Positions 7,898 through 35,091 of a stretch of DNA of 64,000 bases are shown here, piece by piece. Within the stretch, counting starts at the first letter, position 1, and each line of letters begins with the position of its first letter. The position numbers and the translations under genes are program-made. The stretch spans positions 1,376,748-1,440,747 of the forward strand of contig NC_134527.1 in the NCBI RefSeq assembly GCF_027942865.1, written 5' to 3'. This DNA comes from Odontesthes bonariensis. Taxonomy: Eukaryota > Chordata > Actinopteri > Atheriniformes > Atherinopsidae. The notes below the pieces were generated by a model. It ran no database searches. It saw nothing but the letters and a program-made list of their open reading frames with translations, and was not told the origin of the DNA.

Positions 7898-8724
7898 CTA
7901 GATTAAAATGTTTAATCTAATTAATCGCATGATTTCCCTGATTAATCACGATTAATCTCATTTGTACGCAGAATCCAAAAATGAATCCAAAAGTAGCGTA
8001 TAGCTTTTAGCATTTAGCTTTATTTTAAATGTGCTGCCATATGAATGAAAGTGCCATAACATTTGTTGTGCAAACACACTTTTAACATCAGCATCTTTCT
8101 GTAGTTTTTATGTAGAAGCCTCGCTCCACTGTCTGTTTCCTTGAATGACTTGCTGCTATCAGTTGTGTGTTTTGCCTTTAAGTGATATTTTAGACTGGAA
8201 CTACTACGCTGAGAAGACAATTCAACTTGGCAGTGTTTACAGATGACTTTGGTTCTGTCGACTCCGCCGTCTGGAAGAACTTTAAAATGAAAATGGCCGA
8301 GTAAAAGTTCCGTACCCTTCTCCACGTTTGGTGGATCCGCCGATTACTTTCTTTTCCTGTTCCACAGCAGACAGCAGAAGACTTTTACAAAATAAAAGCC
8401 TGTGAGCAACAGACTTTTACAAAATAAAAGCCTGTGAGCGACAGACTTTTACAAAATAAAAGCCTGTGAGCGACAGACTTTTACAAAATAAAAGCCTTTC
8501 AGCAACAGTCTGCAGCTGGCCCCGATTCGAGTCCCGCATCGGACGGCCCTGTGCTGCATGTCGTTCCCCCTCTCTCTGCCAAAATGTTTTTATTTTTTTA
8601 TTAAAAAAATGTTACATTTTATTTTTTTAAATAAACAGATAAAACCTGCGTTAATGCGCGATAAAATATTTATCGGCGTTAAATAATTAACGAGTTAACG
8701 CGATAATAACGACTTAACTCGCCC
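7898..8724 (-). mobile_element. hAT-like element, copy A (decayed)
   Basis: The right end carries the family terminus 'taacgagttaacgcgataat' followed by 'aacgacttaactcgccca'. The left end is worn but keeps 'gatttccctgattaatcacg'. On the minus strand, 8325-8020 encodes a 101-residue BED-type zinc finger fragment (CKHCQVELSSQR, then YHLKAKH: C-x2-C ... H-x4-H). BED fingers are typical of hAT transposases. No DDE catalytic part remains. Positions 8378-8505 hold four copies of a 32-bp unit that is hugely expanded in copy D (43738-45628). A piece near 8520-8575 with 'gattcgagtcc' resembles a tRNA-type B box, as in a SINE. Confidence 0.75.
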
Positions 8725-12400: not shown

Positions 12401-15400
12401 TATGGAAGTATGCAGTACGTAGTATGGAAGTATGCAGTATGGAAGTATGAAGTATGTAGTAAGTATTATGCGGTTTCGAACACAGCCTTGGTGTAATCGA
12501 GTAGTTTGAAAACTAAAAATCTAAACAAGTTTGAACCTTTTATTTAAAACAACCTAAAAACCTAAAAATGTTAAAATTTTTTCCGCTTTTTTTTTTTCAT
12601 AGATCTTTTATTTTACTCCAGTTCTGATTATAACCACCAAGTTTTAAAAAAATATTAATATATGGTATTTTGGGGATCGTTTTAAAAGGGGACAAAAATG
12701 TCCCTTTTCAGAAATGGAGTTTTTTTTCCTACACAATAAAAAATTGCATTATATATGATATGTGTTTGAAATTCGAAAAAATAGTCAAAAATGCACAAAT
12801 ATTATGAGTATCGCTATTTCCAGTGTGAAAGTTCACCCCAAGTGGAGAAAAATGTCCCCTATCAGGGATGAAGTTGTGTTTTAAATCAGGTATGAGGGTT
12901 AAAGTCTTATCCATCGCTGATTTAAAGACCCGTTGGTGTAATTATCTTCTTGTCTACCCAGATTCATGAGCTGGGGGCGATGGGGGTGATGGCCATGGAG
13001 GTGCCGGAGGAGCTGGGGGGCGCAGGGATGGACTACCTGGCCTACAGCATAGCTGTGGAGGAAATCAGCCGAGGCTGCGCCAGCACCGGCGTGGTGGTCT
13101 CCGTCAACAATGTGGGTACAGATCTAACCCTTTGAGGGTTAAAATCTACCCCAAAATAAAGCAACTTTGAGTTTTAAATCCAAAATCTATTTGTATGATG
13201 AAACCACCTGTTATTTATTTATTCAACTCAATTCAATACATTTGTTATCATGTATTTTTTGTTACACAATACAAAAAGACAATCACCAGTTTTCAGGATT
13301 ACACTTTTTTTTTTTTACCACAAACCAACTGTCAGTTGGACCAACAGATTTCTTGTTTTCTCAGTTTCCTTTGACATAATAAAGGTTTATTATTGCTATT
13401 ATATAAATGTGAAGTAATTACTTCTGAATTAATTATATTGAAAGGGAAAAAAACAGTGAACTTTTTTCTGGTGTTTAAATGTTTTTATAACTCACGGGTC
13501 AAAAATGACCCATAAGACAATCTTTGTACCCTAGTGGTGTACAGCCCACATGGAAACAAACACAAATAAAGAATGACTTTTTCTAATGATGGGGTCCCTT
13601 TAGGAAAAGTCATAACATTTCAGGTTGGTAAAAGATAGTTTAAGGTATTTTTTCTACAGCTAAACATGGTGGTGGCTCACTTTTGACCCGCAGGACAACA
13701 GGAGGGTTAACTGGAGTCTGATGTGAAACAGTGAGATTATATTGATATAATATATATTGATTGATATTCTGTGTGCCAGTCTCTCTACATCGGGCCGATC
13801 CTGAAGTTTGGGACCGAAGCCCAGAAGCAGCAGTGGATCCCCCCGTTCACCACCGGGGAGCAGGTGGGCTGCTTTGCCCTCAGCGAGCCAGGTAGCTTCC
13901 TCACTCATTACCCTCATATTTTATCTGAATCTCTTCATATTTATGTGTGCTGATCCATCTGGCTCTTATATGTGGTCAAATAATAAGATTATGGAGCTTC
14001 AGGAGAGGTTTAATTGGCTTAAATTTAGCTGATGTGAACATTCCTTTATAGTTCTGCTTAGTTTTACATGAGTGAAGATAAATAAAAGCTTAAAGAGGTC
14101 CATTAATAACAGCTTTACTGCCTGTTTGATTGTAAAAGTTGTGCCATGAGGAACTGGAACGACTCAACAGCTGGTTTCCTCTGCTGATTTTAACTTTAGA
14201 TGTGAGTCAGAGATTTGGAGACGAAACGTTAAAACGATTCAAATAAAGAAAGAAAAAGCGGAAAGGTTTTTACGCTCAGTTTGGGTGGATGGAAACAAGT
14301 TTGAAATTATGTGATGGTGGAGCTCCTGCCTCCTGATGGTGGAGCTCCTCCCCCTGATGTTGGAGCTCCTCCCCCTGATGGTGGAGCTCCTCCCTCCTGA
14401 TGTTGGAGTTCCTCCCCCCTGATGTTGGAGCTCCTCCCTCTGGATGTTGGAGTTCCTCCCCCTGAATGGTGGAGCTCCTCCCCCCTGATGTTGGAGTTCC
14501 TCCCCCTGATGTTGGAGCTCCTCCCCCTGATGTTGGAGCTCCTCCCTCCTGATGTTGGAGCTCCTCCCCCTGATGTTGGAGCTCCTCCCCCTGATGTTGG
14601 AGCTCCTCCCTCCTGATGGTGGAGCTCCTCCCCCTGATGTTGGAGCTCCTCCCTCTGGATGTTGGAGTTCCTCCCCCTGAATGGTGGAGCTCCTCCCCCC
14701 TGATGTTGGAGCTCCTCCCCCCTGATGTTGGAGCTCCTCCCCCCTGATGGTGGAGCTCCTCCCCCTGGATGTTGGAGTTCCTCCCCCTGATGGTGGAGCT
14801 CCTCCCTCCTGATGGTGGAGCTCCTCCCCCTGATGTTGGAGCTCCTCCCCCCTGATGTTGGAGCTCCTCCCCCCTGATGTTGGAGCTCCTCCCCCCTGAT
14901 GTTGGAGCTCCTCCCTCTGGATGTTGGAGTTCCTCCCCCTGAATGGTGGAGCTCCTCCCCCCTGATGTTGGAGTTCCTCCCCCTGATGTTGGAGCTCCTC
15001 CCCCTGATGTTGGAGCTCCTCCCTCCTGATGTTGGAGCTCCTCCCCCTGATGTTGGAGCTCCTCCCCCTGATGTTGGAGCTCCTCCCTCCTGATGGTGGA
15101 GCTCCTCCCCCTGATGTTGGAGCTCCTCCCCCTGATGTTGGAGCTCCTCCCTCCTGATGGTGGAGCTCCTCCCCCTGATGTTGGAGCTCCTCCCTCTGGA
15201 TGTTGGAGTTCCTCCCCCTGAATGGTGGAGCTCCTCCCCCCTGATGTTGGAGCTCCTCCCCCCTGATGTTGGAGCTCCTCCCCCCTGATGTTGGAGCTCC
15301 TCCCCCCTGATGTTGGAGCTCCTCCCCCCTGATGGTGGAGCTCCTCCCCCTGGATGTTGGAGTTCCTCCCCCTGATGGTGGAGCTCCTCCCTCCTGATGG

Positions 15401-18400
15401 TGGAGCTCCTCCCCCTGATGTTGGAGCTCCTCCCCCCTGATGTTGGAGCTCCTCCCCCCTGATGTTGGAGCTCCTCCCCCCTGATGTTGGAGCTCCTCCA
15501 TCTGGATGTTGGAGTTCCTCCCCCTGAATGGTGGAGCTCCGCCCCCCTGATTTTGGCATTCCTCCCCCTGATGTTGGAGCTCCTCCCCTGGATGGTGGAG
15601 CTCCTCCCTCCTGATGGTGGAGCTCCTCCCTCCTGATGGTGGAGCTCCTCCCTCCTGATGTTAGAGTTCCTCCCTCTGAATGGTGGAGCTCCGCCCCCCT
15701 GATTTTGGCGTTCCTCCCCCTGATGTTGGAGCTCCTCCCCCTGTTGTTGGAGCTCCTCCCTGGATGTTGGAGTTCCTCCCCCTGATGTTGGAGCTCCTCC
15801 CCCTGATGTTGGAGCTCCTCCTTCCTGATGTTGGAGCTCCTCCCCCTGATGTTGGAGCTCCTCCCTCCTGATGGTGGAGCTCCTCCCTCCTGATGTTGGA
15901 GCTCCTCCCTCCTGATGTTGGAGCTCCTCCCTCCTGATGTTGGAGCTCCTCCCTCCTGATGTTGGAGCTCCTCCCCCTGATGGTGGAGCTCCTCCCTCCT
16001 GATGGTGGAGTTCCTCCCCCTGAATGGTGGAGCTCCTCCCCCTGATGTTGGAGCTCCTCCCCCTGATGTTGGAGTTCCTCCCCCTGAATGGTGGAGCTCC
16101 TCCCCCCTGATGGTGGAGCTCCTCCCTCCTGATGTTGGAGCTCCTCCCCCTGATGTTGGAGCTCCTCCCTCTGGATGTTGGAGTTCCTCCCCCTGATGGT
16201 GGAGCTCCTCCCTCCTGATGGTGGAGCTCCTCCCCCTGATGTTGGAGCCCCTCCCCCTTGATGGTGGAGCTCCTCCCTCCTGATGGTGGAGCTCCTCCCC
16301 CCTGATGTTGGAGCTCCTCCCTCCTGATGGTGGAGCTCCTCCCCCTGATGTTGGAGCTCCTCCCTCCTGATGTTGGAGCTCCTCCCCCTGATGGTGGAGC
16401 TCCTCCCCCTGATGTTGGAGCCCCTCCCCCCTGATGTTGGAGCCCCTCCCCCCTGATGTTGGAGCTCCTCCCCCAGATGTTGGCGCTCCTCCTCCTGATG
16501 TTGGTCACCTGGTTTCCAGGTAACGGCAGTGATGCGGGCGCCGCCTCCACGGTGGCTCGTCAGGACGGGGAGGAGTGGGTGCTGAACGGGACCAAAGCCT
16601 GGATCACCAACAGCTGGGACGCCTCGGCCACCGTCGTGTTCGCCACCACGGACAAGAAGCTCAAGCACAAGGCAGGTTCAGTAATACGCCGACGGAAGGG
16701 GGGGGGGGCATCTGAATCTGACTTCTTTTTGGCCTCTGTGTCTGCAGGGCATCAGCGCCTTCCTGGTGCCCATGCCCCTGCCAGGGCTTTCTCTGGGCAA
16801 GAAGGAGGACAAGCTGGGCATCAGGGCCTCGTCCACTGCTAACCTGATCCTGGAGGACTGCAGGGTGCCGCTGGACAGCATGCTGGGCCCGCGGGGGGCC
16901 GGATTCAAGATCGCAATGGTATTTAAATCCTCTTTCACTCCAGTTTCATGTTTCACAGGAAGAGCCGAATGCCTCAGAGTGACATCACAGGGTTGTTTGA
17001 GCTGTTTGGGTCAACTCCAGCAGGTTAATTCTGTCATAGTGAGCGCTGCTGCAACCCGACTGTGGAAGTTTTTCTGTGCCATCAGAGTTTGAATATGAAT
17101 TTCTAATCATTTCATTTTTAACATTGAAAAAAAAAAATCAGAGGCAAAAAAAATAGGAATACAAATTGGTGCTCAAAATTTGATGGTTTTTAAAATTCAA
17201 AGTCTGATTTTGATGCTGTAAAAATTCAAAATTAGAAATTAATATTCACACTCTGGCACAGAAAAACTTCCATACCCGACCAGCTGTGATTGGTCAGCTG
17301 ATGTTCTGTGGTGATGTGATGTCATAGAGGAGGAAGTTGTTTATGATTATGATTACAATGATTACACCCTCTATATTTTCACTACCCCCTACCCGAACCA
17401 GGGTTTGAATCCCATTCCTGCTTTTCTTACCTCTTTTATTTCTTCCCCCTACCCGAACCAGGGTTTGCATCCCCACCCCGCTGTGACTGGTGTGCAGTTG
17501 GTGAGAGTGAGTTGTATGGATTTGTTTTTGCTGGTATTTTAGTGATTATAGGACTGTTTAGGTGAGTTTGTCTGCTGAATCTGCTAGTGTGTCTTGTCCT
17601 TCCTCCACCTCTGGCACTCTCTATATTTTCATTACCCCCTACCCGAACCAGGGTTTGAATCCCATTCCTGCTTTTCTTACCTCTTTTATTTCTTCCCCCT
17701 ACCCGAACCAGGGTTTGCATCCCCACCCCGCTGTGACTGGTGTGCAGTTGGTGAGAGTGAGTTGTATGGATTTGTTTTTGCTGGTATTTTAGTGATTATA
17801 GGACTGTTTAGGTGAGTTTGTCTGCTGAATCTGCTAGTGTGTCTTGTCCTTCCTCCACCTCTGGCACTCTCTATATTTTCATTACCCCCTACCCGAACCA
17901 GGGTTTGAATCCCATTCCTGCTTTTCTTACCTCTTTTATTTCTCCCCCTACCCGAACCAGGGTTTGCATCCCCACCCCGCTTTAACTGGTGTGCAGTTGG
18001 TGAGAGGCTGAGGTAGATTATGGTCGTTGTGGTGTGAGGGGCAGTGTTGGCTGGCATTAGGGGGGTGACTCTGGGACGCCAGTGGTCATTGTCTAGCCTC
18101 CTGGAGGTGTCGTGGGCCCAACTAGACGAAACACTGATGAAAGGAGGTTCCCACCTGATGACCCCAATGATATGTTGGTCAGCACTGCTCATTGATCTAT
18201 ATAATACGGAGTGTAGGGAATTATTCACTGAGTCTGGTCCTTTATTTTATTTTATTTTATTTTTTTATTTTCTTTAGCACAAGTTTCTTGTGTTTATATT
18301 GAATCCAAATCTAGCCTAGCTAGTGACTGTTGTGAATAGGGCAGCTGACAACAAGGGAAAGACCATGTGACAGATTGGAAAGACAGCTGACAGGAGGCAA

Positions 18401-21400
18401 AGACCCCAAAGGTGCTGCCATGGGCTAGCAACCCATGGTAGCAGTAGCGAGGCCTAGCCGCTTTGTTACAACCAGCATAAGCTACAGAAAGATTAAGGAG
18501 AATACCCCTAGAGTCAGCGAGAGCAGGGGCGGAAGATGACTCACTGGCAGACTACATGGCAACTGACACTGGAACGAACATGACTAAGAGGTGGATACGC
18601 GACTCAGTGAAGGATAGGGGCACGGGCCTATTCTCTAGGGCTAGAATTGACCAGAATAGTTCTCAGAGGAAAGAGAGCTTAAATAAAAGTGGTAGACTAG
18701 AGGGAAGTAAGCTTCAGGTTTGTCCTTGTGGCTGGCAGAAAGTAACATCAGTTAGAGGCCTTAAAATGCATCAGGGAAGAAAGAGATGTGTGGTAAAAGA
18801 AGGGCAGTGTGGCCGCATCGATCAGTACTTTTTAAGAAGTCAATCGAGTAAGTCGGATGAAGTCCAGCGGCAGGTAGAAAACCACAGTCCGAAGGATATC
18901 AATAACACAGCTATGGAGGTGGAGGAGGAGGTTCTAAGAAGGGATGTAGCTGATACTGAGGTGAACAGGCCAGTTAGAGAGAGAAATATGGAGCAGAAAG
19001 ATAGAGTTAAGTGGCCTAGGGCAAATAGTTACAAAGAATGGGAGGCAGTCAATAAAGATTTGTCAATAATATTGGGTAGGTTAGGAGGAAATGCAAGCGA
19101 TAGGCTAGAGAAGATGGGAGATATAATTTATTCCTATGGTGTAGAGAGATTTGGGGTGCAAGATAGAAAGAGGGTTGAAACAGTACATTTAGGTAAGTCA
19201 AGACGGCAAAAAGAGATGGAGAAATTGGTTAAGGAAAGAAGAAATTTAAGAAAGCAGTGGAAAAAAGCTACAGAAGAAGAGAGGGAGGGAATTAATGTTT
19301 TGCAGGAAGAACTGAGAGGCAGGCTAGCAATACTTAGAAGGGCTGAAAGTCTTAGGAAAAAGAGAAAGAAGAAAGAATATGTTAGGACGGCATTTTATAG
19401 GGACCCGTTCAAGTTTGTTAAAGGGTTGTTTAACCAGGAAAAGGGAGGGCAGCTTAAGGCAACAAAGTTAGAGGTGGAAGAGTATCTAAGAAATACATAT
19501 TCAGATCTTGAGCAGCGTAGAGTAGTAGGCCTTCCACCTGACATGCCACCGTTAGGAGAGATAGCTCATAAGATGGATGTTAGACCACCTCGGTGGAAGG
19601 AGGTTGAGGAGGTAGTCAGGCGTGCAAAGGCTTCGTCGGCCCCAGGGCCAAATGGAGTCCCCTACCGGGTTTATAAAAGTGCACCTGATATCCTAAAGTT
19701 TTTGTGGAAGCAATTAAGAATAGTTTGGGAGAAACAGGTTATTCCTAGAGCATGGCGTAGGGCAGGAGGCGTTCTTATTCCAAAGGAAAAGGAGTCCTCG
19801 AACCTGAGTCAGTTCCGGATGATCTCTCTCCTAAATGTAGAGGGGAAGATTTTCTTTAGTTTGGTTGCACAGAGATTAGCTAGTTATTTAGAAAATAATA
19901 GCTTAATAGATACTACTGTGCAGAAGGCAGGAATACCTGGTTTCGCAGGGTGTTTAGAGCACACTAGCATGATTTGGCATCAGATTCAGACAGCCAAGAT
20001 TGAGAAAAAAGACTTGCATGTTATATTTCTAGATCTAGCAAATGCATTTGGTTCAGTGCCACATAGCCTTATTTGGGAAGCATTTGAGTATTTTAGAGTG
20101 CCTGTAGTAGTGGTTAACTTAGTAAGAGCGTATTTTCAAGATATTAGACTGTGCTTAAGTACAGCAGGTTTCACAACAGGTTGGCAGAGGCTAGAAATAG
20201 GCATTATGGCAGGGTGTACAATTTCTCCATTAGCATTTACAATGGCCATGGAGATAATTATTAGAGCTTCCAAGTGGGTTGTAGGAGGAGAGAGACGTCA
20301 GGATGGCATGCGCCTTACGCCAATTAGAGCATACATGGATGATATGACGTTAGTGACTACAACAGTACCATGTATGAAGAGAATACTTGAGAGACTTGAT
20401 AAAAATCTAAAGTGGGCTGGGATGAAAATCAAACCTACTAAGTCTAGAAGTATCTCAATAAGGAGAGGGAAATTAAGTGATAGAAAGTTTGTAATAGATG
20501 AAGAAAGCATTCCAATAATAAGGGAAAAGGCAGTGAAGAGTTTAGGCAGGTGGTACCAGGCAGACATGAATGATGGAAAGCAGTCAGTGCAGTTTTGTGA
20601 AGATGTTGCTGAGGGACTGGATAGAATAGATAAATCAGAGCTTCCAGGAAAGTTGAAGCTGTGGTGTCTGCAGTTTAGATTGTTTCCTAGGCTGATGTGG
20701 CCACTGTCTGTGTATGAGATTCCATTATCTGTTGTAGAAAAAATGGAAAGATTAGTTAGCTTTTATATTAGGAAGTGGCTAGGTGTTCCTAGATGCTTAA
20801 GTACTGTGGCACTGTATGGGAAAGGCATACTCCAGCTCCCAGTATCTAGTCTAGTAGAGGAGTTTAAATGTACTAAAGTTAGGACAGAGCTCCTGTTAGC
20901 TGGGAGTAAAGATGTGGTAGTTAGTAAGGTGGTTCCAAACCCAACCAAGGGGAGGAAGTGGAAACCAAGATTGGCAGCTCAGGAGGCAGAAGCAACTCTT
21001 AGACATGCAGAGATTGTGGGTAATGTGCAAATAGGCCGGGGAGGCTTGGGGCTTGGCCCAGGCAAACCGGTGTGGAGTAGAGCAGGTCCCAAGGAGAAGA
21101 GAAAGCTAGTTGTTGAGCAGATTCGTAGACAGGAGGAAATGTTAAGGGGTGCAAAGGCAGTGGCTCAGGCTAAGCAGGGACGGTGGGTGAACTGGGAAGG
21201 TGTAGAAAAGAAAAAGCTTAGTTGGAAAGAACTGTGGAGTATGGAGGAAAGGAGTATTAGATTTTTGATAGGGGCAACATATGATGTATTGCCTACTCCC
21301 CAGAACCTAAAACTCTGGGTAAATGGAGACCCGTTATGTTCGTTATGTTCAGGTACTGCAACTCTAAAGCATATTTTGTCAGGTTGTAAGGTTAGTCTGT

Positions 21401-24400
21401 CACAAGGCCGGTATACATGGCGACATGACCAAGTATTAAGAAGTTTAGCTGCAGGTATTGAAGATAAACGAAGGCAGGTAAACTTAGGAGGGTCCAAGGT
21501 ACAGAGAGTTGCAATTCAGTTTGTTCAACAGGGGGAGAAAGTTAAAAAGACGATAAGGAGGCACGGCAGCTTGGAGGATGCTTGTGATTGGGAGATGCAG
21601 GTAGATTTAGGAAATAAGCTTGTTGTTCCCCAGGAAATAGCCTCTACAAACTTAAGGCCTGATATAGTCTTGTGGTCTAGGAGTAGAATGAGAGTCTATT
21701 TCATAGAGCTGACTGTTCCTTGGGAGGAATTAGTAGAGGAAGCATATGAAAGGAAAAAGCTTAGATATGTGGAGTTGGGGGCAGAAGCAGAGCAGCGAGG
21801 ATGGAAGGTTAGAATTTGTCCAGTGGAAGTAGGATGTAGAGGATTTGTTGCAAAGTCTGTTGTCTCATTGTTGAGGGAGCTGGGTGTAACTGGACAGAGT
21901 GTGAGAAAAATAGTGCAGGAGGTTTCAGATAAAGCATTACAATCCAGTCAGTGGATTTGGATAAGAAGAAGCAATAGCAGCTGGGGGCCCAGCAGGGGGA
22001 GCACTTAGGGTAAACAGACTTTTGAAAAAGCAAAGAAGAAGTTCAAGCTATTTAAGTGGTGGGTTTGGCACATGTGATCCTTTTGAAACCAGGCGGCCAT
22101 TTTGGGTGAGTTGGCTTGGAGTGAGTTGTATGGATTTGTTTTTGCTGGTATTTTAGTGATTATAGGACTATTTAAGTGAGTTTGTCTGCTGAATCTGCTA
22201 GTGTGTCTTGTCCTTCCTCCACCTCTGGCACCCTCTATATTTTCACTACCCCCTACCCGAACCAGGGTTTGAATCCCATTCCTGCTTTTCTTACCTCTTT
22301 TATTTCTTCCCCCTACCCGAACCAGGGTTTGCATCCCCACCCCGCTGTGACTGGTGTGCAGTTGGTGAGAGTGAGTTGTATGGATTTGTTTTTGCTGGTA
22401 TTTTAGTGATTATAGGACTGTTTAGGTGAGTTTGTCTGCTGAATCTGCTAGTGTGTCTTGTCCTTCCTCCACCTCTGGCACTCTCTATATTTTCATTACC
22501 CCCTACCCGAACCAGGGTTTGAATCCCATTCCTGCTTTTCTTACCTCTTTTATTTCTTCCCCCTACCCGAACCAGGGTTTGCATCCCCACCCCGCTGTGA
22601 CTGGTGTGCAGTTGGTGAGAGTGAGTTGTATGGATTTGTTTTTGCTGGTATTTTAGTGATTATAGGACTGTTTAGGTGAGTTTGTCTGCTGAATCTGCTA
22701 GTGTGTCTTGTCCTTCCTCCACCTCTGGCACTCTCTATATTTTCATTACCCCCTACCCGAACCAGGGTTTGAATCCCATTCCTGCTTTTCTTACCTCTTT
22801 TATTTCTCCCCCTACCCGAACCAGGGTTTGCATCCCCACCCCGCTTTAACTGGTGTGCAGTTGGTGAGAGGCTGAGGTAGATTATGGTCGTTGTGGTGTG
22901 AGGGGCAGTGTTGGCTGGCATTAGGGGGGTGACTCTGGGACGCCAGTGGTCATTGTCTAGCCTCCTGGAGGTGTCGTGGGCCCAACTAGACGAAACACTG
23001 ATGAAAGGAGGTTCCCACCTGATGACCCCAATGATATGTTGGTCAGCACTGCTCATTGATCTATATAATACGGAGTGTAGGGAATTATTCACTGAGTCTG
23101 GTCCTTTATTTTATTTTATTTTATTTTTTTATTTTCTTTAGCACAAGTTTCTTGTGTTTATATTGAATACAATTAATTGAATTCCAATTGGCTTGAATTG
23201 GACTTTATTATCTAAGTGCCTTGAGATGACATTTGTTGTATTTGGCGCTATATAAATAAAAATGAATTGAATTGAATTGTTTCAGGCAGGTTCTTTGGGA
23301 CAGGAACCTAACATCTCAGCAGATGTTTGACATCCACCAAAGGCCATAAAACACAAAGAGGAGACTCTAAACGGCTCATTGTGAGCCTCTGTCAAGGAAA
23401 ACTAACAGAAGTCTGCATTTTAATGAGTTTTTATTATTATTATCTCGCTTTTCAGGTTCTTTGTGGTCATTTTACACACTGAGCAGAATGACATAAGCAC
23501 ACTCATTAGCTTATTCACTGAGCTTCTGGCACCATCGGTCTCTTATCTTCCTGTGATTTTGGATGATTAAAACTCCAGTTGGAAGTGATTTGAAGTCAGG
23601 ATAAAGGAAAGTTCTGGAAATAAAGACGCGGCTCTGTCCAAAAGAGGATTTTACTGAGTGATGAGACTTTAAACTGATGATGCAGCTTCTTGGGAAGCCT
23701 GTGTGATATCTGAGTCTCCCCGTGTCTCCTGTCAGAACTCTAACGAGTTAATCTGAGTTAATGTGAGTTATTCTGTTTCTCGCAGCAAACTCTGGACAGC
23801 GGGCGCATCGGGATCGCTGCTCAGGCTCTCGGCATCGCTCAGGCGTCTCTGGACTGCGCCGCCGACTACGCACTGAAGCGCACGGCGTTCGGGGCCCCCA
23901 TCGGCAAGCTGCAGGCCATACAGGTAACATACAGGTAACATACAGGCCATACAGGTAACATACAGGCCATACAGGTAACATACAGGCCATACAGGTAACA
24001 CACAGGCCATACAGGTAACATACAGGCCGTACAGGTAACATACAGGCCATACAGGTAACACACAGGCCATACAGGTAACATACAGGCCGTACAGGTAACA
24101 TACAGGCCATACAGGTAATATACAGGTAATATACAGGCCATACAGGTAACATACAGGCCATACAGGTAACATACAGGCCATACAGGTAACACACAGGCCA
24201 TACAGGTAACATACAGGCCGTACAGGTAACATACAGGTAATATACAGGCCATACAGGTAACATACAGGTAATATACAGGCCATACAGGTAACATACAGGC
24301 CATACAGGTAACATACAGGCCATACAGGTAACATACAGGCCATACAGGTAACATACAGGCCGTACAGGTAACATACAGGTAATATACAGGCCATACAGGT

Positions 24401-27400
24401 AACATACAGGTAATATACAGGCCATACAGGTAACATACAGGGCATACAGGTAACACACAGGCCATACAGGTAACATACAGGCCGTACAGGTAACATACAG
24501 GTAATATACAGGCCATACAGGTAACATACAGGTAACATACAGGCCATACAGGTAATATACAGGTAATATACAGGCCATACAGGTAACATACATGCCATAC
24601 AGGTAACATACAGGCCATACAGGTAATATACAGGTAACATACAGGCCATACAGGTAACATACAGGCCATACAGGTAACATACAGGCCATACAGGTAACAT
24701 ACAGGCCATACAGGTAACATACAGGCCGTACAGGTAACATACAGGTAATATACAGGCCATACAGGTAACATACAGGTAATATACAGGCCATACAGGTAAC
24801 ATACAGGCCATACAGGTAACATACAGGCCATACAGGTAACATACAGGCCGTACAGGTAACATACAGGTAATATACAGGCCATACAGGTAACATACAGGTA
24901 ATATACAGGCCATACAGGTAACATACAGGGCATACAGGTAACACACAGGCCATACAGGTAACATACAGGCCGTACAGGTAACATACAGGTAATATACAGG
25001 CCATACAGGTAACATACAGGTAACATACAGGCCATACAGGTAACATACAGGCCATACAGGTAACATACAGGCCATACAGGTAACATACAGGCCATACAGG
25101 TAACACACAGGCCATACAGGTAACATACAGGCCGTACAGGTAACATACAGGTAATATACAGGCCATACAGGTAACACACAGGCCATACAGGTAACCTGCA
25201 GGCCATACAGGTAACACACAGGCCATACAGGTAACCTGCAGGCCATACAGGTAACCTGCAGGCCATACAGGTAACCTGCAGGCCATACAGGTAACACACA
25301 GGCCATACAGGTAACCTGCAGGCCATACAGGTAACCTGCAGGCCATACAGGTAACATACAGGTAACATACAGGCCATACAAGTAACACACAGGCCATACA
25401 GGTAATATACAGGCCATACAGGTAATATACAGGCCATACAGGTAATATACAGGCCATACAGGTAATATACAGGCCATACAGGTAACATACAGGCCATACA
25501 GGTAACCTGCAGGCCATACAGGTAACCTGCAGGCCATACAGGTAATATACAGGCCATACAGGTAACACACAGGCCATACAGGTAACCTGCAGGCCATACA
25601 GGTAACCTGCAGGCCATACAGGTAACCTGCAGGCCATACAGGTAATATACAGGCCATACAGGTAACACACAGGCCATACAGGTAACCTGCAGGCCATACA
25701 GGTAACCTGCAGGCCATACAGGTAACCTGCAGGCCATACAGGTAATATACAGGCCATACAGGTAACACACAGGCCATACAGGTAACACACAGGCCATACA
25801 GGTAACCTGCAGGCCATACAGGTAACCTGCAGGCCATACAGGTAACCTGCAGGCCATACAAGTAATATACAGGCCATACAGGTAACACACAGGCCATACA
25901 GGTAACCTGCAGGCCATACAGGTAACCTGCAGGCCATACAAGTAACACACAGGCCATACAGGTAATATACAGGCCATACAGGTAACCTGCAGGCCATACA
26001 GGTAACATACAGGCCATACAGGTAATATACAAGCCATACAGGTAATATACAGGTAACATACAGGCCATACAGGTAACCTGCAGGCCATACAGGTAATATA
26101 CAGGTAACATACAAGTAACACACAGGCCATACAGGTAATATACAGGCCATACAGGTAATATACAGGTAACATACAGGCCATACAGGTAACCTGCAGGCCA
26201 TACAGGTAATATACAGGTAACATACAGGTAACACACAGGCCATACAGGTAACATACAGGTAACATACAGGTAACATACAGGTAACACACAGGCCATACAG
26301 GTAACACACAGGCCATACAGGTAACATACAGGTAACATACAGGTAACATACAGGTAACATACAGGTAACATACAGGTAACATACAGGTAACATACAGGCC
26401 ATACAGGTAACACACAGGCCATACAGGTAACACGCAGGCCATACAGGTAACACGCAGGCCATACAGGTAACACACAGGCCATACAGGTAACATACAGGCC
26501 GTACAGGTAACATACAGGCCATACAGGTAACACACAGGCCATACAGGTAACACACAGGCCATACAGGTAACATACAGGCCGTACAGGTAACATACAGGCC
26601 ATACAGGTAACATAAAGGTAACATACAGGCCATACAGGTAACATACAGGCCATACAGGTAACATACAGGCCATACAGGTAACCTGCAGGCCATACAGGTA
26701 ACATACAGGCCATTCAGGTAACATACAGGCCGTACAGGTAACATACAGGCCGTACAGGTAACATACAGGCCGTTCAGGTAACATACAGGCCGTACAGGTA
26801 ACATGCAGGCCATACAGGTAACATGCAGGCCATACAGGTAACATACAGGTAACATACAGGTAACATACAGGTAACATACAGGTAACATACAGGCCATACA
26901 GGTAACATACAGGTAACATACAGGTAACCTGCAGGCCATACAGGTAACATACAGGTAACATACAGGTAACATACAGGTAACATACAGGTAACATACAGGT
27001 AACATACAGGTAACATACAGGCCATACAGGTAACATACAGGTAACATACAGGTAACATACAGGCCATACAGGTAACATACAGGTAACATACAGGTAACAT
27101 ACAGGTAACATACAGGCCATACAGGTAACATACAGGTAACATACAGGCCATACAGGTAACCTGCAGGCCATACAGGTAACATACAGGTAACATACAGGCC
27201 ATACAGGTAACATACAGGCCGTACAGGTAACATACAGGTAACATACAGGTAACATACAGGCCATACAGGTAACATACAGGTAACATACAGGTAACATACA
27301 CGTAACATATAGGTAACATACAGGTAACATACAGGTAACATACAGGCCATACAGGTAACATACAGGTAACATACAGGTAACATACAGGCCATACAGGTAA

Positions 27401-28614
27401 CATACAGGTAACATACAGGCCATACAGGTAACCTGGAGTTTACCCAGAGACGGGCTGTTATCTCAGCGTGTTTAAGGTCGGTAACGCTGGCTGAACCAGA
27501 CGCTGGATCTGTAACAGGTTCTGTCTCCAGATGAGGACACGTGTCCCTCTGCAGCCCAGAATATGTGGCTGCACAGACACTAAATACACCCTGATGCACA
27601 CTGTGGTCAAGGTGACGTTTATTTATGTAGCACCTTACAACAACCCGGGCTGGCCAAAGTGCTTTACATAAATAAATAACAGTAAAATCCAACAGATACA
27701 TTAACAAAGAAATTCAGCTAAAGATAAAAACTATTTACACACACAGACAACATTTGTTTCTCCCAGGTCTGAAAGCCTGGGAGAAACCATATGCAGCGGT
27801 AACCATGGTAACACATTCCAAAGTTTAGGGGCAGCCACTGCAAAAGCTGGATGGCCTTTAGCTTTTAGCCTGCATTTAGGCTCATCCAGGTAAAGTTTGT
27901 TAGCCGACCTCAGAGATCTGATTGGCGTGTGAACATGTATGAGTTCAGTTAAATACTCAGGGGGCCCAGACCGTTTAAAATGTTAAAAACGAACATCAGG
28001 ATCTTAAAATCAGCTCTGAAGCGGACAGGAAGCCAGAGCAGAGAGGCCAGAGCCGGGTTATATGTTCCCGTGTCTGTAATGAAGCCGAGCAGCAGCACCA
28101 GAGAGCGCTGCTCTAAACCTACGAACAGTCCAGTCTGGAGAAACCTCACATTGGTGCAACTTGGGAAAGAGTCGTGTTATTTCCCAGCACTGAGTCTTGT
28201 GTGTTTTCTTCCCGTGTTCCAGTTCAAGCTGGCCGACATGGCGGTGGCGATAGAGAGCGCTCGCCTGCTCACCTGGAAGGCTTCGCTCCTGCGGGACTCA
28301 AAGAAAGCCTTCACTAAGGTACGGCCGCCTCGGCTCTAAGGTTTTTACGCTCCGCAGGGAGCAGGAGTCCCACTCGGCTGCTTTGTCCCCGCAGGAAGCA
28401 GCCATGGCCAAGCTGGCGGCGTCCGAGGCCGCCACCTTCTGCGCCCATCAGGTAAGGAGCCGGCGGCGCCCGCAGGAAGAGTCGAGCCGAGCCAAAGCCT
28501 GCAGATGTGTTCACAGCTTCTCCTCCCTGTGCTTTACACCAGTCCATCCAGATCCTGGGGGGGATGGGCTTCGTGACCGACATGCCGGCGGAGAGGCACT
28601 ACCGCGACGCCCGC

Positions 28615-28650
<36 letters not shown>

Positions 28651-28695
28651 AGGCTGGTCATCGCCGGCCAGATACTCAAGGAGTACCAGTTATAG
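9429..28695 (+). CDS. acads: Short-chain acyl-CoA dehydrogenase, mitochondrial
   Basis: Exons: 9429-9456, 11465-11625, 12962-13111, 13780-13891, 16520-16671, 16748-16918, 23786-23923, 28223-28318, 28395-28451, 28543-28695. They join in frame to 405 residues (human 412). The enzyme is an FAD flavoprotein of the mitochondrial matrix that makes the trans-2,3 double bond in butyryl-CoA, the first step of short-chain beta-oxidation, and passes electrons to ETF. The N-terminus (MAALFKARK...) is basic, as in a targeting peptide. The first family signature is [13 protein letters not shown]. The second runs from QILGGMG through [17 protein letters not shown]; the Glu in IYEGTSE (about residue 385) is the catalytic base. 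Introns are 2008, 1336, 668, 2628, 76, 6867, 4299, 76 and 91 bp; the long ones are swollen by arrays and transposons. Intron 5 has a GC donor (16672). No break is seen in the coding exons. Confidence 0.95.
10150..10470 (-). mobile_element. L2-type LINE 3' fragment
   Basis: The reverse strand encodes the worn C-terminal motif of fish LINE polymerases ([16 protein letters not shown] in one frame, corresponding to 'APxxWNxLPExLR'). It is followed by '[11 protein letters not shown]'-like sequence and a tail complementary to 'ggcaagtttatctgtaaggc'. It lies in acads intron 1. The clade name is inferred. Confidence 0.55.
10610..10980. repeat. Dispersed teleost repeat
   Basis: This stretch contains the high-copy teleost sequence 'aggaaggaaagttttaagcc', upstream 'cagcagtcagggcctatagc' and similar. 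I recognise it as a sequence dispersed through many fish genomes. It runs directly into the 55-bp array, whose unit is the next part of the same dispersed repeat. It lies within acads intron 1. Confidence 0.5.
10980..11445. repeat. 55-bp minisatellite, acads intron 1
   Basis: About 8.4 nearly identical copies of a 55-bp unit ('gaggggcctgataactgaag', then 'gctctgcctcccaaactggc', then 'agctggttccaca'). Only the last full copy shows a change (ggttcc to ggctcc). The array ends about 20 bp before the exon 2 acceptor at 11464, so the intron's branch and pyrimidine region abuts it. Confidence 0.95.
11807..12486. mobile_element. Non-autonomous DNA element 'GGCTGTGTTC', copy 1
   Basis: It is bounded by inverted ends 'ggctgtgttccaaaccgcat' and the complement of 'atgcggtttcgaacacagcc' (about 22 bp, one mismatch). 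It is 680 bp with no coding frame. Near the right end (12384-12470) lies a short run of 'gtatggaagtatgcagta' units, the seed of the huge array in copy 3. It lies in acads intron 2. Related copies are at 31169 and 46578. No target duplication is certain and the superfamily is not assigned. Confidence 0.8.
12487..12961. other. Rest of acads intron 2
   Basis: AT-rich sequence with no exon seen. It contains inward-facing 'ggggacaaaaatgtccc' style palindromes near 12688 and 12850 that resemble the termini of a decayed piggyBac-type MITE. That identification is weak. Confidence 0.3.
13315..13710. mobile_element. piggyBac-like MITE, copy 1
   Basis: The right end reads 'gacccgcaggacaacaggag' then GGTTAA. 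The 'CCCTCCTGTTGTCC' terminus beside TTAA is that of a common fish piggyBac-type element. The same sequence occurs in reverse at 52028-52343, which shows it is mobile. The left boundary is uncertain. It lies in acads intron 3, ending 69 bp before the exon 4 acceptor. Confidence 0.6.
13892..14311. other. Start of acads intron 4
   Basis: Unremarkable AT-rich intron sequence leading into the minisatellite. No additional exon is seen. Confidence 0.5.
14312..16505. repeat. 21-23-bp minisatellite, acads intron 4
   Basis: About 100 copies of 'gatgttggagctcctccccc' plus 1-3 bases. Variants are ttgg/gtgg, ctcc/cctc and an occasional 'gaa' or 'gga' before tgg. Higher-order blocks are visible: for example 14400-14640 and 14880-15115 repeat the same order of variants. 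The minus strand is purine-rich with runs of GGGGGAGGAG. The array ends 14 bp before the exon 5 acceptor. Long apparent frames on both strands come only from the lack of stops in the unit. Confidence 0.95.
16672..16673 (+). promoter_or_regulatory. GC donor of acads intron 5
   Basis: Exon 5 must end CACAAG to keep K-GISAFLVP in frame with exon 6. The intron therefore begins GCAGGT rather than GT. The nearby GT at 16675 would shift the frame. GC-AG introns are a known minor class. Confidence 0.75.
16919..17364. other. Start of acads intron 6, before the retrotransposon
   Basis: No exon. Segments 17055-17100 and 17235-17275 are inverted copies: 'tggaagtttttctgtgcca' with the complement of 'tggcacagaaaaacttcca'. 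The 170-bp A-rich interior suggests a small fold-back element. Confidence 0.45.
17365..18304 (+). repeat. Upstream 940-bp copy with three 250-bp monomers
   Basis: Monomers start near 17368, 17618 and 17868. Each contains two 'ccctacccgaaccagggttt' motifs about 80 bp apart. The part from about 17990 to 18304 occurs once. It is identical in layout to 22229-23168. Confidence 0.9.
18556..22008 (+). CDS. Retrotransposon polyprotein: zinc finger, reverse transcriptase, restriction-like endonuclease
   Basis: An intact 1150-residue frame. Residues 56-78 form a Cys/His finger (CPCGW ... MHQGRKRC). A basic, coiled-coil-prone stretch spans about 200-285. The reverse transcriptase runs from about 340 to 660: [26 protein letters not shown] (first catalytic Asp) and AYMDDM near residue 594 (Asp pair). 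Near 928-945 a CCHC knuckle ([17 protein letters not shown]) precedes the endonuclease with RPDIVLW and FIELTVPWE, the PD-(D/E)XK core of R2/NeSL/Zebulon-type elements. There is no N-terminal AP endonuclease. The frame is open for about 25 codons before the first ATG (in-frame TAA near 18478), so the start is uncertain. It shows no stop or frameshift, so recent activity is likely. It resembles Zebulon most closely; R2- or HERO-clade placement is not excluded. Confidence 0.9.
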   Translation: MATDTGTNMTKRWIRDSVKDRGTGLFSRARIDQNSSQRKESLNKSGRLEGSKLQVCPCGWQKVTSVRGLKMHQGRKRCVVKEGQCGRIDQYFLRSQSSKSDEVQRQVENHSPKDINNTAMEVEEEVLRRDVADTEVNRPVRERNMEQKDRVKWPRANSYKEWEAVNKDLSIILGRLGGNASDRLEKMGDIIYSYGVERFGVQDRKRVETVHLGKSRRQKEMEKLVKERRNLRKQWKKATEEEREGINVLQEELRGRLAILRRAESLRKKRKKKEYVRTAFYRDPFKFVKGLFNQEKGGQLKATKLEVEEYLRNTYSDLEQRRVVGLPPDMPPLGEIAHKMDVRPPRWKEVEEVVRRAKASSAPGPNGVPYRVYKSAPDILKFLWKQLRIVWEKQVIPRAWRRAGGVLIPKEKESSNLSQFRMISLLNVEGKIFFSLVAQRLASYLENNSLIDTTVQKAGIPGFAGCLEHTSMIWHQIQTAKIEKKDLHVIFLDLANAFGSVPHSLIWEAFEYFRVPVVVVNLVRAYFQDIRLCLSTAGFTTGWQRLEIGIMAGCTISPLAFTMAMEIIIRASKWVVGGERRQDGMRLTPIRAYMDDMTLVTTTVPCMKRILERLDKNLKWAGMKIKPTKSRSISIRRGKLSDRKFVIDEESIPIIREKAVKSLGRWYQADMNDGKQSVQFCEDVAEGLDRIDKSELPGKLKLWCLQFRLFPRLMWPLSVYEIPLSVVEKMERLVSFYIRKWLGVPRCLSTVALYGKGILQLPVSSLVEEFKCTKVRTELLLAGSKDVVVSKVVPNPTKGRKWKPRLAAQEAEATLRHAEIVGNVQIGRGGLGLGPGKPVWSRAGPKEKRKLVVEQIRRQEEMLRGAKAVAQAKQGRWVNWEGVEKKKLSWKELWSMEERSIRFLIGATYDVLPTPQNLKLWVNGDPLCSLCSGTATLKHILSGCKVSLSQGRYTWRHDQVLRSLAAGIEDKRRQVNLGGSKVQRVAIQFVQQGEKVKKTIRRHGSLEDACDWEMQVDLGNKLVVPQEIASTNLRPDIVLWSRSRMRVYFIELTVPWEELVEEAYERKKLRYVELGAEAEQRGWKVRICPVEVGCRGFVAKSVVSLLRELGVTGQSVRKIVQEVSDKALQSSQWIWIRRSNSSWGPSRGST
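22229..23168 (+). repeat. Downstream 940-bp copy (3' UTR of the retrotransposon)
   Basis: Same three monomers and unique part as 17365-18304. Here the first monomer is preceded by a further partial monomer (about 22113-22228), which is part of the proper 3' UTR. Its last matching base is 23168. Confidence 0.9.
23169..23282 (+). repeat. Fish retroposon 3' tail with (GAATT)n
   Basis: The sequence 'tggcgctatataaataaaaa' ending in repeated GAATT is a very common teleost LINE/SINE terminus. It is absent after the upstream 940-bp copy (18305 onward). It is therefore probably an older element into which, or beside which, the Zebulon-like copy landed. Confidence 0.6.
23283..23785. other. End of acads intron 6
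   Basis: Ordinary intron sequence with no exon or clear repeat, ending in the exon 7 acceptor (TCTCGCAG). Confidence 0.5.
23909..27432. repeat. 10/20-bp minisatellite seeded by the acads exon 7 donor
   Basis: The last 15 exon bases and the first intron bases (CTGCAGGCCATACAG|GTAACA) are repeated for 3.5 kb. The 20-bp form is 'ggccatacaggtaacataca'; the 10-bp form is 'ggtaacatac'. Variants include aca/ata/cctg/cacg before the next unit and ccat/ccgt. About 25000-26200 is rich in units that retain the exon-like 'cctgcaggccatacag'. Long open frames on the minus strand are artefacts of the repeat. Confidence 0.95.
27605..28190 (-). mobile_element. L2-type LINE, 3' part of the polymerase frame
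   Basis: On the minus strand, 28149-27949 encodes '[20 protein letters not shown]' followed by [10 protein letters not shown]. This is the well-known C-terminal motif of fish LINE polymerases (ASLHWLPVRFRIDFKILLF...LNGLAP). Downstream pieces read like '[14 protein letters not shown]'. The 3' tail is the complement of 'tttatttatgtagcacctta'. The fragment is truncated and inactive, inside acads intron 7. Confidence 0.8.
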
Positions 28696-28697
28696 TG

Positions 28698-29552
28698 CAA
28701 CAGCAACATTTACCCCCACAGGGCAACAGCAACATTTACCCCCACAGGGCAACAGGAACATTTACCCCCACAGGGCAACAGGAACATTTACCTCACAGGG
28801 CAACAGGAACATTTACCCCCACAGGGCAACAGCAACATTTACCTCACAGGGCAACAGCAACATTTACCCCCACAGGGCAACACGAACATTTACCCCCACA
28901 GGGCAACACGAACATTTACCCCCACAGGGCAACACGAACATTTACCTCCACAGGGCAACACGAACATTTACCCCCACAGGGCAACACGAACATTTACCCC
29001 CACAGGGCAACACGAACATTTACTCCCACAGGGCAACACGAACATTTACCTCCACAGGGCAACAGGAACATTTACCCCCACAGGGCAACACGAACATTTA
29101 CCCCCACAGGGCAACACGAACATTTACCCCCACAGGGCAACACGAACATTTACCTCCACAGGGCAACACGAACATTTACCCCCACAGGGCAACACGAACA
29201 TTTACCCCCACAGGGCAACACGAGCATTTACCCCCACAGTGCAACACCAACATTTACCCCCACAGGGCAACACCAACATTTACTCCCACAGGGCAACACG
29301 AACATTTACCTCCACAGGGCAACAGGAACATTTACCCCCACAGGGCAACACGAGCATTTACCCCCACAGGGCAACACGAACATTTACCCCCACAGGGCAA
29401 CACCAACATTTACCCCCACAGTGCAACACCAACATTTACCCCCACAGGGCAACACCAACATTTACCCCCACAGGGCAACACCAACATTTACCCCCACAGG
29501 GCAACACCAACATTTACCCCCACAGGGCAACACCAACATTTACCCCCACAGG
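28698..29552. repeat. 26-bp minisatellite forming the acads 3' UTR
   Basis: About 33 copies of 'gggcaacacgaacatttacc' plus 'cccaca'. The first copy begins within 3 bp of the TAG stop (28693-28695). Positions vary between 'cag', 'agg', 'acg' and 'acc' before 'aacattta', with runs of like variants. It is transcribed if the poly(A) signal at 29821 is used. Confidence 0.95.
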
Positions 29553-34000: not shown

Positions 34001-34648
34001 TTATACGTAGTGCTTCTTGTCGAACTCCCCGTTGGTCGTGATGGTCTTGGTGGGCGCGTACTTGATGGGGTAGGAGCCCCGGACCCCCTGGGAGAAGGAG
34101 CAGCACAGCAGGCTGCCGCCGAACAGCAGCAGCGCGGTGGCGGCCCAGCCCACGTAGATGGCCGCGCCGATCTCGCGCTTCTTGGACGGGGGCACCTGCG
34201 GGTTGTGGAAGTCCACGATGATGTTGTTGGCCATCCAGCAGAGCGGCACCAGCACGAACAGCCCGCTGAGGATGTACAGCACCCCGCCGGCGTGCACCAC
34301 CTTCGCCTTCACCGCCTCGTCCCGCAGGCAGTTGGTGCACTGCGCGCCGGCCACCGTCACCGTCAGCGCCACCACGCCCAGCACCGCGGACACGACGGTG
34401 AGCGCGCGCGCCGTCTGCAGGTCCTGCGTCAGCGCCAGCACGGAGTCGTGGATCTTGCACTGCATCTGGCCCGTGCTCTGCACCACGCACGACATCCACA
34501 GCCCGTCCCACATGGTCTGCGCCACCACGATGTTGGAGTCGATGAAGGCGGTGACCTTCCACATGGGCAGCCCGCAGGCCACCATCACCAGCAGCGAGCC
34601 CGCGACGCACAGCGCCAGGCCCAGCACCTCCAGGCACGCGGCCAGCAT
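34001..34648 (-). CDS. cldn5: Claudin, claudin-5-like tight-junction protein
   Basis: An intronless 215-residue frame. Claudins span the plasma membrane four times and seal tight junctions; claudin-5 does so mainly in endothelium. Membrane segments lie near residues 8-28, 80-101, 118-141 and 162-184. The first extracellular loop has the family signature GLW (49-51) with C54 and C64. The C-terminus ends KKHYV, a PDZ-binding tail. CGLPMWKVTAFIDSNIVVAQ, WMSCVVQSTGQMQC and the YAPTK...GEFDKKHYV tail match claudin-5 best. The Met at 34648 is chosen because the 38 codons upstream do not resemble a claudin N-terminus, and 215 residues is the expected size. The gene is GC-rich, unlike its surroundings. 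Which fish paralogue (cldn5a or cldn5b) is not resolved. Confidence 0.93.
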   Translation of the reverse strand: MLAACLEVLGLALCVAGSLLVMVACGLPMWKVTAFIDSNIVVAQTMWDGLWMSCVVQSTGQMQCKIHDSVLALTQDLQTARALTVVSAVLGVVALTVTVAGAQCTNCLRDEAVKAKVVHAGGVLYILSGLFVLVPLCWMANNIIVDFHNPQVPPSKKREIGAAIYVGWAATALLLFGGSLLCCSFSQGVRGSYPIKYAPTKTITTNGEFDKKHYV

Positions 34649-35091
34649 GGCTCCTTCTGGGGCAGGTGGGCAATTGACTTGGTTGTAGAGAGGACACAGG
34701 AGGGGAAACGAGTGATGAGTTAAGAAAAAAAAAGATTGGAGGAGACAAAAAACAAGGGACAAAAAAAATGGAGCAAATTAAACAAGAATACGAAAAAGGA
34801 GAAAAGTAAAAGTGGGGCAGGTGGGGGTCCTCGCGCTGCTTCTGCTCTGAGTGGCTGCGGAGCGCGCGGGGCTCCGCGTTTATCACAGCAAAAACCGGCC
34901 AACTGTGGGCCAATCAGCAGCGAGTGCGTCTCTGTCAGCCAAAGAGGGGCGGCGGCCCCCTCTCACGCGCATTACGCACGGAGTGTTTACGCGTTTTGGA
35001 GCAGCATGAGTGGATGTTTCCTGTAATTCAGAGCAGCGGAGCAGAAACCTGCTTTTTGTTTTTCATCTCACGAGTTTTCTGGCTTTTATAT

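What the first reader, a model, noticed from the sequence alone, without database searches (positions are those of the whole stretch)
23909..27432. A 3.5-kb minisatellite grown from the acads exon 7 splice donor
The array unit is the exon-intron junction itself: the final exon bases CTGCAGGCCATACAG and the intron start GTAACA are repeated without a break from the true junction onward. The intron therefore contains some 150-200 further copies of a CAG|GTAAC donor, many with the exonic context retained. The spliceosome must choose the first of these, or spread over many, since each 20-bp step would add non-coding sequence and shift frame. I know of no described case on this scale.
Basis: partly seen in the sequence, partly recalled or inferred. 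Interest (0 to 1): 0.78.

Follow-up and report, generated by a model that had tools for sequence, protein, structure and literature searches.

The report
Repeat array born from splice donor
In this animal's acads gene, the 20 bases that straddle the end of one exon have been copied in tandem into 3.5 kb of look-alike splice sites; the same kind of array is known from a few human genes, and two or three more cases turned up in this genome.

Summary
The edges fit slippage between two 9-of-12-matching stretches 20 bp apart. The exact 20-mer was found 19 times in the 945-Mb genome, all here. Exons 2-10 read intact; no second copy was found. All 204 downstream donors would bring a premature stop, so function needs the first donor. 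That it is chosen is inferred; no RNA was available.

The claim of no described case is wrong: the human ABCA7 VNTR begins at a donor GT and reaches about 427 units, 10.7 kb; CBS and IFI6 are further cases. What is added is recurrence: of 18 other donor-triplet loci fetched (17 with a TRF array), 3 sit at coding-exon donors (COMP-domain exon with 132 donors, NHE3-like, a less certain zinc-finger-like exon) and 3 lie 9-36 bp from acceptors, without a matched control. New member of a known kind. Relatives were untestable.

The parts
23786..23923 (+). acads exon 7, 138 bp, phase 0, codes [46 protein letters not shown]
   Evidence: phmmer vs PDB short-chain acyl-CoA dehydrogenase 1jqi E 9.9e-16, 2vig E 1.8e-15; acceptor TTTCTCGCAG and donor GTAACATA
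23909..23928 (+). founding 20-bp word CTGCAGGCCATACAG|GTAAC straddling the junction (15 exonic + 5 intronic bases)
   Evidence: 19 exact copies in the window stretch and 19 in the whole-genome pattern search, all in this array
23924..23925 (+). first donor GT, the only GTAA donor of the 205 that leaves the reading frame intact
   Evidence: 395-residue open reading of exons 2-10 with this donor; 204 of 204 other GTAA donors truncate
23924..27432 (+). junction-born minisatellite (intronic part, 3,509 bp): 9-mers and 11-mers tiling without indels, 204 further GTAA sites
27428..27438 (+). right edge GTAACCTGGAG, the presumed original intron start displaced by the array
   Evidence: joined to the exon in a script it gives the 9-of-12 direct repeat at 20-bp spacing
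27433..28222 (+). remaining part of intron 7 up to the exon 8 acceptor; no TRF row falls in it
28223..28318 (+). acads exon 8 ([32 protein letters not shown])
   Evidence: found again in the genome search
28395..28451 (+). acads exon 9
28543..28695 (+). acads exon 10 with the stop codon
11465..11625 (+). acads exon 2
12962..13111 (+). acads exon 3
13780..13891 (+). acads exon 4
16520..16671 (+). acads exon 5 (apparent GC donor AAG|GCAGGT)
16748..16918 (+). acads exon 6

Best explanation
A minisatellite founded by tandem duplication of the 20 bases that straddle the exon 7 splice donor. Two similar 12-base stretches 20 bp apart (GGCAAGCTGCAG in the exon, GGTAACCTGGAG at the intron start) let replication slip or repair misalign, giving a first copy CTGCAGGCCATACAG|GTAAC. 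Because exonic ATACAG and CTGCAG resemble each other, the unit then split into a 9-mer and an 11-mer that could recombine separately, and the array grew by further slippage and by block duplication to 3.5 kb. All added copies lie on the intron side, so the protein is unchanged as long as U1 and exon definition settle on the first donor. The array is then mostly tolerated intron ballast with a cost: some transcripts use the next donors, carry a premature stop and are removed by nonsense-mediated decay. Shown: anatomy, origin of the unit, reading-frame consequences, no second acads copy found, other such arrays in this genome. Inferred: order of duplication events, dominance of the first donor, leakage and decay.
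For: Flush left edge and gapless tiling. The exonic bases in the unit are coding and align in place with SCAD structures. The exact 20-mer was found at this locus only. The empty site has a 9-of-12 direct repeat at exactly 20 bp; 175 of 20,000 random sequences did as well at that spacing. Internal exact repeats of 263 bp at a 488-bp shift and 197 bp at a 100-bp shift. 204 of 204 alternative donors truncate. Computed duplex energy with the U1 5' end is -8.0 to -8.1 kcal/mol for the first donor and for the three other common donor forms tried, so strength does not single out the first donor. In ABCA7, a like case, use of the donor one unit downstream is a measured isoform with a premature stop, and cycloheximide raised the premature-stop transcripts (PMC5954066 passages). 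Other donor-born arrays in the same genome: L050, L052 and, less surely, L049.
Against: No RNA data. No relative was available, so the empty intron is inferred from the edges. The token just after the exon is GTAACATACAG, not the expected GTAACCTGCAG, so that edge has changed since the first duplication. The slippage-seed test is modest (about 0.9%) and was framed after seeing the array. The array length rests on one assembly. On donor choice, two published cases speak against easy dominance of the first site: in ABCA7 the alternative isoforms together (exon 19 skipping included) exceeded the canonical one in 90% of one brain region's samples and 31% of hippocampal ones, and with the CBS 68-bp duplication of an intron-exon junction the more distal copy is strongly favoured (PMC2630376 passage). 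Of the 18 other loci fetched, 15 were not at a coding donor that I could recognise.
Confidence: 0.7

Rival explanations
1. The decoy donors are a working regulator: the array draws a sizeable share of splicing to truncating donors, so repeat number sets the acads mRNA level through nonsense-mediated decay.
For: All 204 alternatives truncate more than 55 nt before the last junction. Longer ABCA7 alleles go with lower expression (PMC5954066 passages); the title of Lievers 2001 links the CBS VNTR to reduced activity (reference list).
Against: In ABCA7 unit retention itself did not change with VNTR length, exon 19 skipping did, and the authors saw no effect of length on decay. No expression data here. 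Nothing tested suggests that selection keeps the array.
Confidence: 0.22
2. The array is an insertion or assembly artefact: a repeat from elsewhere, or collapsed or misjoined reads, placed against the exon.
For: The genome is rich in tandem repeats: 25% of this window, and 45%, 0%, 100%, 0% and 0% of five 10-kb samples. No reads were examined.
Against: The unit contains the exon's own coding bases, and the exact 20-mer was found nowhere else in the genome. The array tiles without indels and has its own variant pattern. The contig is 33 Mb long.
Confidence: 0.05
3. Ratchet use: each CAG|GTAAC is both acceptor and donor, and intron 7 is removed in steps (recursive splicing).
For: AG|GT is juxtaposed at the 198 CAGGTAA sites.
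Against: The 18 nt before the array AGs average 44% pyrimidine (maximum 50%, 195 sites examined) against 56-94% for the nine acads acceptors of exons 2-10.
Confidence: 0.02
4. The donors act as a U1 landing strip that shields the pre-mRNA from early polyadenylation or slows polymerase, without being spliced.
For: 198 CAGGTAA sites, a word that forms seven consecutive pairs with the U1 5' end; the idea of U1 protection is recalled, not from a call.
Against: Not tested; no poly(A) signal analysis was done.
Confidence: 0.06

Closest known systems
ABCA7 intron 18 VNTR, human (PMC5954066; passages seen)
   Same: Tandem array whose first bases are the exon's donor GT; each 25-bp unit carries a donor; kilobase scale (about 12 to 427 units, up to 10,678 bp); a retained unit shifts the frame and brings a premature stop.
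   Different: Its unit is described as starting at the intron GT, while the acads unit includes 15 exonic bases and is a 9/11-bp composite. ABCA7 effects were measured; acads effects are predicted.
CBS 31-bp VNTR c.1444_1467+7, human (PMC2630376; passages seen; Lievers 2001 seen only in the reference list)
   Same: By its coordinates the unit spans an exon-intron border (24 exonic + 7 intronic bases), as in acads.
   Different: 16-21 units against 345 tokens of 9 or 11 bp here.
IFI6 / 6-16 minisatellite, human (Turri 1995; title seen in reference lists; paper not held)
   Same: Minisatellite said to provide multiple splice donor sites; PMC4526556 says that two downstream repeat units are used as donors (passage).
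   Different: By recall 26 units of 12 bp, so frame-preserving; in acads every alternative truncates.
Intron gain by tandem duplication across a splice boundary (PMC4974935; abstract seen)
   Same: A tandem duplication that crosses an intron-exon boundary and copies splice signals.
   Different: There one duplication makes a new intron; here an existing intron is enlarged.

Membership tests
Splice-donor minisatellite (ABCA7 / CBS / IFI6 kind) | Array begins at, or spans, the donor of a coding exon | tested here: met
   Left edge flush with 23923/23924; exon confirmed against SCAD
Splice-donor minisatellite (ABCA7 / CBS / IFI6 kind) | Units carry donor-like sites in the gene's orientation | tested here: met
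   198 CAGGTAA on +
Splice-donor minisatellite (ABCA7 / CBS / IFI6 kind) | Alternative use of array donors in mRNA | not testable with these tools
   No transcript data for this species
Splice-donor minisatellite (ABCA7 / CBS / IFI6 kind) | Copy number varies among individuals | not testable with these tools
   One genome only
Intron gain by tandem duplication | A new intron results | tested here: not met
   Exons 7 and 8 join in frame as one SCAD reading and the array lies inside one intron
Recursive splice site | Polypyrimidine tract before the AG|GT | tested here: not met
   44% pyrimidine on average over 195 sites against 56-94% at nine acads acceptors
Dispersed or transposon-borne minisatellite | Unit found at other loci | tested here: not met
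   The exact 20-mer was found only in this array (exact matches only, diverged units not sought). By contrast the 55-bp intron 1 unit recurs in L035

The most novel reading that the evidence does not exclude
In this genome splice donors repeatedly seed minisatellites: coding-exon donors in acads, a COMP-domain (thrombospondin-family, by recall) gene (2,375-bp intron, 132 CAG|GTRAG sites), an NHE3-like gene (202-bp intron made mostly of 4.8 copies) and a zinc-finger-like exon have each become tandem donor arrays, making whole introns of decoy donors a recurrent, tolerated state that could be used to measure how the spliceosome picks the first of many equal donors.
Probability: 0.5. Interest if true: 0.65.

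Novelty: new member of a known kind. Interest (0 to 1): 0.48.

Why it matters
About 200 near-equal donors in a row at a junction that the protein needs, in a gene for which no second copy was found, form a natural experiment on 5' splice site choice: sequence strength is nearly constant and position differs. The parallel arrays in other genes of this genome would let the same question be asked of other units (16, 29 and 34 bp) with one RNA-seq data set. It also shows a route by which coding bases at an exon end become tandem repeat DNA.

Tried and rejected
Recursive splicing: rejected on pyrimidine content. Special RNA structure over 23786-24085: fold energy is ordinary, z -0.09. RNA families in the window: none at gathering score. 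A simple rule 'stronger donor, more arrays': tandem triplets of CAGGTAAC gave 4,454 matches against 57 for the reversed motif, CAGGTAAG 1,071 against 81, CAGGTGAGT 913 against 4, but the best consensus CAGGTAAGT gave only 8 against 62, so the rule fails. Matches are not independent: the 81 matches of the reversed CAGGTAAG motif come from 3 arrays, while the capped list of CAGGTAAG matches already shows 9. Three further control words (CAGCTAAC; CAGGTTAC; CAATGGAC) did not complete, so these controls did not run. Exon-edge clustering in acads: 4 of 7 arrays lie within 21 bp of an exon edge, 0 of 3,000 random placements, but the 55-bp array near exon 2 has a dispersed unit and the cut-off was chosen after looking, so I do not claim splice-site origin for the other three. 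Fish relatives: no collection here is described as holding them, and none was searched. Literature: ten searches listed no paper whose title or abstract start reports such an array in a fish; none of the searches named acads, and the library is an open-access subset. PMC2688266 (passages) and PMC4039745 (abstract) were opened and not used.

Full report
What is there. The window lies in a 945-Mb genome of 187 contigs, at G000:C27:1376748-1440747. The gene is acads: X-coded translations of 10000-24002 match short-chain acyl-CoA dehydrogenase exon by exon in two frames (the third had no match), and exon 7 alone matches the SCAD chains 1jqi and 2vig over all 46 residues (rat and human by recall). 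Exons 2-10 join into one open reading of 395 residues ending in a stop. Exon 1 was not sought. A genome search with the exon 7-10 protein found this locus (three rows) and three other matches of 32-45% identity (12 candidates scored), so no second acads copy was found at that sensitivity.

The array. From the exon end to 27432 the sequence splits without remainder into 141 9-mers and 204 11-mers, apart from the opening CTGCAG and the closing stretch. Two 9-mers never adjoin; two 11-mers adjoin 64 times. The variants are not evenly spread: 22 of 25 GTAACCTGCAG tokens, the form nearest the exon's own CTGCAG, lie in the 500-bp bins from 24909 to 26408, while GTAACATACAG is common at both ends and nearly absent (1) from the bin at 25409. 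The largest exact internal repeats are 263 bp at a shift of 488 and 197 bp at a shift of 100, as expected of block duplication. The exact 20-mer CTGCAGGCCATACAGGTAAC was found 19 times in the genome, all here (diverged units were not sought).

Origin. The outer edges are the exon end CTGCAGGCCATACAG and GTAACCTGGAGTTTACCC. Joined, they give an empty site in which GGCAAGCTGCAG and GGTAACCTGGAG match at 9 of 12 positions exactly 20 bp apart. At that spacing 175 of 20,000 random sequences of local composition did as well, and no other spacing from 6 to 30 reached 9. Because the 15 exonic bases are coding and align in place with SCAD (4 of the 5 residues LQAIQ shared with 1jqi and 2vig), the array comes from the exon and not the reverse. 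The step from CTGCAG to ATACAG by single changes is inferred; an intermediate (ATGCAG) is present twice.

Consequences. The 205 GTAA sites fall evenly in the three frames (69, 68, 68). With any of the 204 downstream sites the reading ends after 298 residues (203 sites) or 307 (one site, +11) instead of 395, always more than 55 nt before the last junction. Computed pairing with the U1 5' end is -8.0 to -8.1 kcal/mol for the first donor and for three other common forms tried, -3.0 for the rare CAAGTAAC form. So strength hardly tells the first donor from the rest, and position, co-transcriptional order or exon definition must. That is inference; no RNA was available.

Comparison with known cases. 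ABCA7 has a 25-bp VNTR whose first two bases are the exon 18 donor. Alleles run from about 12 to about 427 units (298 to 10,678 bp); one-unit retention, an exon 18 cryptic acceptor and exon 19 skipping were measured; longer alleles go with lower expression; unit retention did not depend on length, exon 19 skipping did; in 90% of samples from one brain region and 31% of hippocampal ones the alternative isoforms together exceeded the canonical one (PMC5954066, passages). The CBS VNTR is written c.1444_1467+7 with 16 to 21 units, and the same paper says that after a 68-bp duplication of another CBS intron-exon junction the more distal copy is strongly favoured (PMC2630376, passages). IFI6: PMC4526556 says two downstream repeat units serve as donors and cites Turri 1995 (passage and reference); PMC2572611 shows only the reference; the 1995 paper is not held.

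Elsewhere in the genome. Tandem triplets of donor-like words were counted against the reversed word: CAGGTAAC 2074+2380 against 11+46, CAGGTAAG 366+705 against 5+76, CAGGTGAGT 550+363 against 0+4, CAGGTAAGT 2+6 against 2+60. The last goes against a simple rule. At the level of arrays, the reversed CAGGTAAG word has 3 in the whole genome, whereas the capped list of the 1,071 CAGGTAAG matches already shows 9. Other control words were sent but did not complete. I fetched 18 loci from the position-ordered, capped lists: L035-L037, L043-L050, L051-L057. Of the places listed I left out C2:1116774, which has the same unit as L045. TRF finds an array in 17 of the 18; L055 has three donor words but no array.

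Three of the 18 sit at coding-exon donors on the same strand. L050 is a COMP-domain exon ending ...GELRQDIREQ, followed by a 2,375-bp intron with 132 CAG|GTRAG, the true donor included; the spliced peptide matches PF11598 over 1-45 at 1.4e-19 and PDB 1fbm at 2.9e-6; all 131 alternatives shift the frame or stop. L052 is an NHE3-like exon whose 202-bp intron opens with 4.8 copies of a 34-bp unit starting at the donor GT; the spliced peptide matches PDB 7x2u at 1.1e-8, the first exon alone matched nothing and Pfam had no family. L049 is less certain: a zinc-finger-like exon (zf-C2H2_jaz, E 0.018, below cut-off; no PDB match) whose 22-bp junction word AACCTGCAG|GTAAGGGCCACAC occurs 9 times, the junction included, with the array starting 32 bp into the intron.

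Three more lie 9, 27 and 36 bp before an acceptor of an exon on the opposite strand: L044 (PHKB-like, PDB 8jfk, 8.9e-11; no Pfam match), L047 (no Pfam match; not run against PDB) and L054 (NR1D2-like, 5e-8); distances. In the other 12 I saw no such exon. Pfam was run there on the donor strand only, for L035-L037, L043, L045, L046 and L048 (L035 and L036 only in part): L046 showed two weak retroelement matches and L045 and L048 one weak match each, all below cut-off. L051, L053 and L055-L057 were judged by eye only. Pfam on whole stretches is blunt for this: of the six exon-bearing loci four were scanned so (L044, L047, L049, L050; for L044 and L047 that was the strand opposite to the exon), and only L050 gave a match, so exons may have been missed in the other 12. 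Exon adjacency of control arrays was not examined, so the fraction 6 of 18 has no matched control.

Verdict. The recurrence within one genome did not appear in the listings of my ten literature searches, and it is what raises the score.

Noticed in passing
28697-29552: A second array (26 bp, 33 copies) begins one base after the acads stop codon. Its consensus unit ends TTTACCCCCACAGG, which looks like a 3' splice acceptor.
   Followed up: no
14312-16504: A 22-bp array (about 101 copies) ends 15 bp before the acads exon 5 acceptor, so the branch point and pyrimidine stretch of intron 4 may lie in the array.
   Followed up: partly
10979-11444: A 55-bp array ends 20 bp before exon 2. The same unit makes a 33-copy array at L035:1-1818, so it is a dispersed repeat.
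   Followed up: partly
16672-16673: acads exon 5 appears to end at a GC donor (AAG|GCAGGT); the next GT would be out of frame with exon 6.
   Followed up: partly
17365-23172: Intron 6 holds an open 1,175-aa frame with a reverse transcriptase domain (PF00078; PDB matches include R2 and LINE-1 proteins) between two 944-bp direct repeats that are 99.9% identical and hold a 250-bp tandem unit.
   Followed up: partly
8379-8508 and 44223-45530: Two minisatellites in the window share one 32-bp unit; the stretches align at about 94% identity.
   Followed up: partly
23751-27713, minus strand: Two antisense frames are open across the whole array (1,198 and 1,321 codons) and the third over most of it (981 codons, then a further 221), a by-product of a nearly stop-free unit.
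   Followed up: no
34004-34777, minus strand: A claudin-family frame (PF00822, 4.3e-26).
   Followed up: no
L040: One of five 10-kb samples is a single tandem array from end to end.
   Followed up: no
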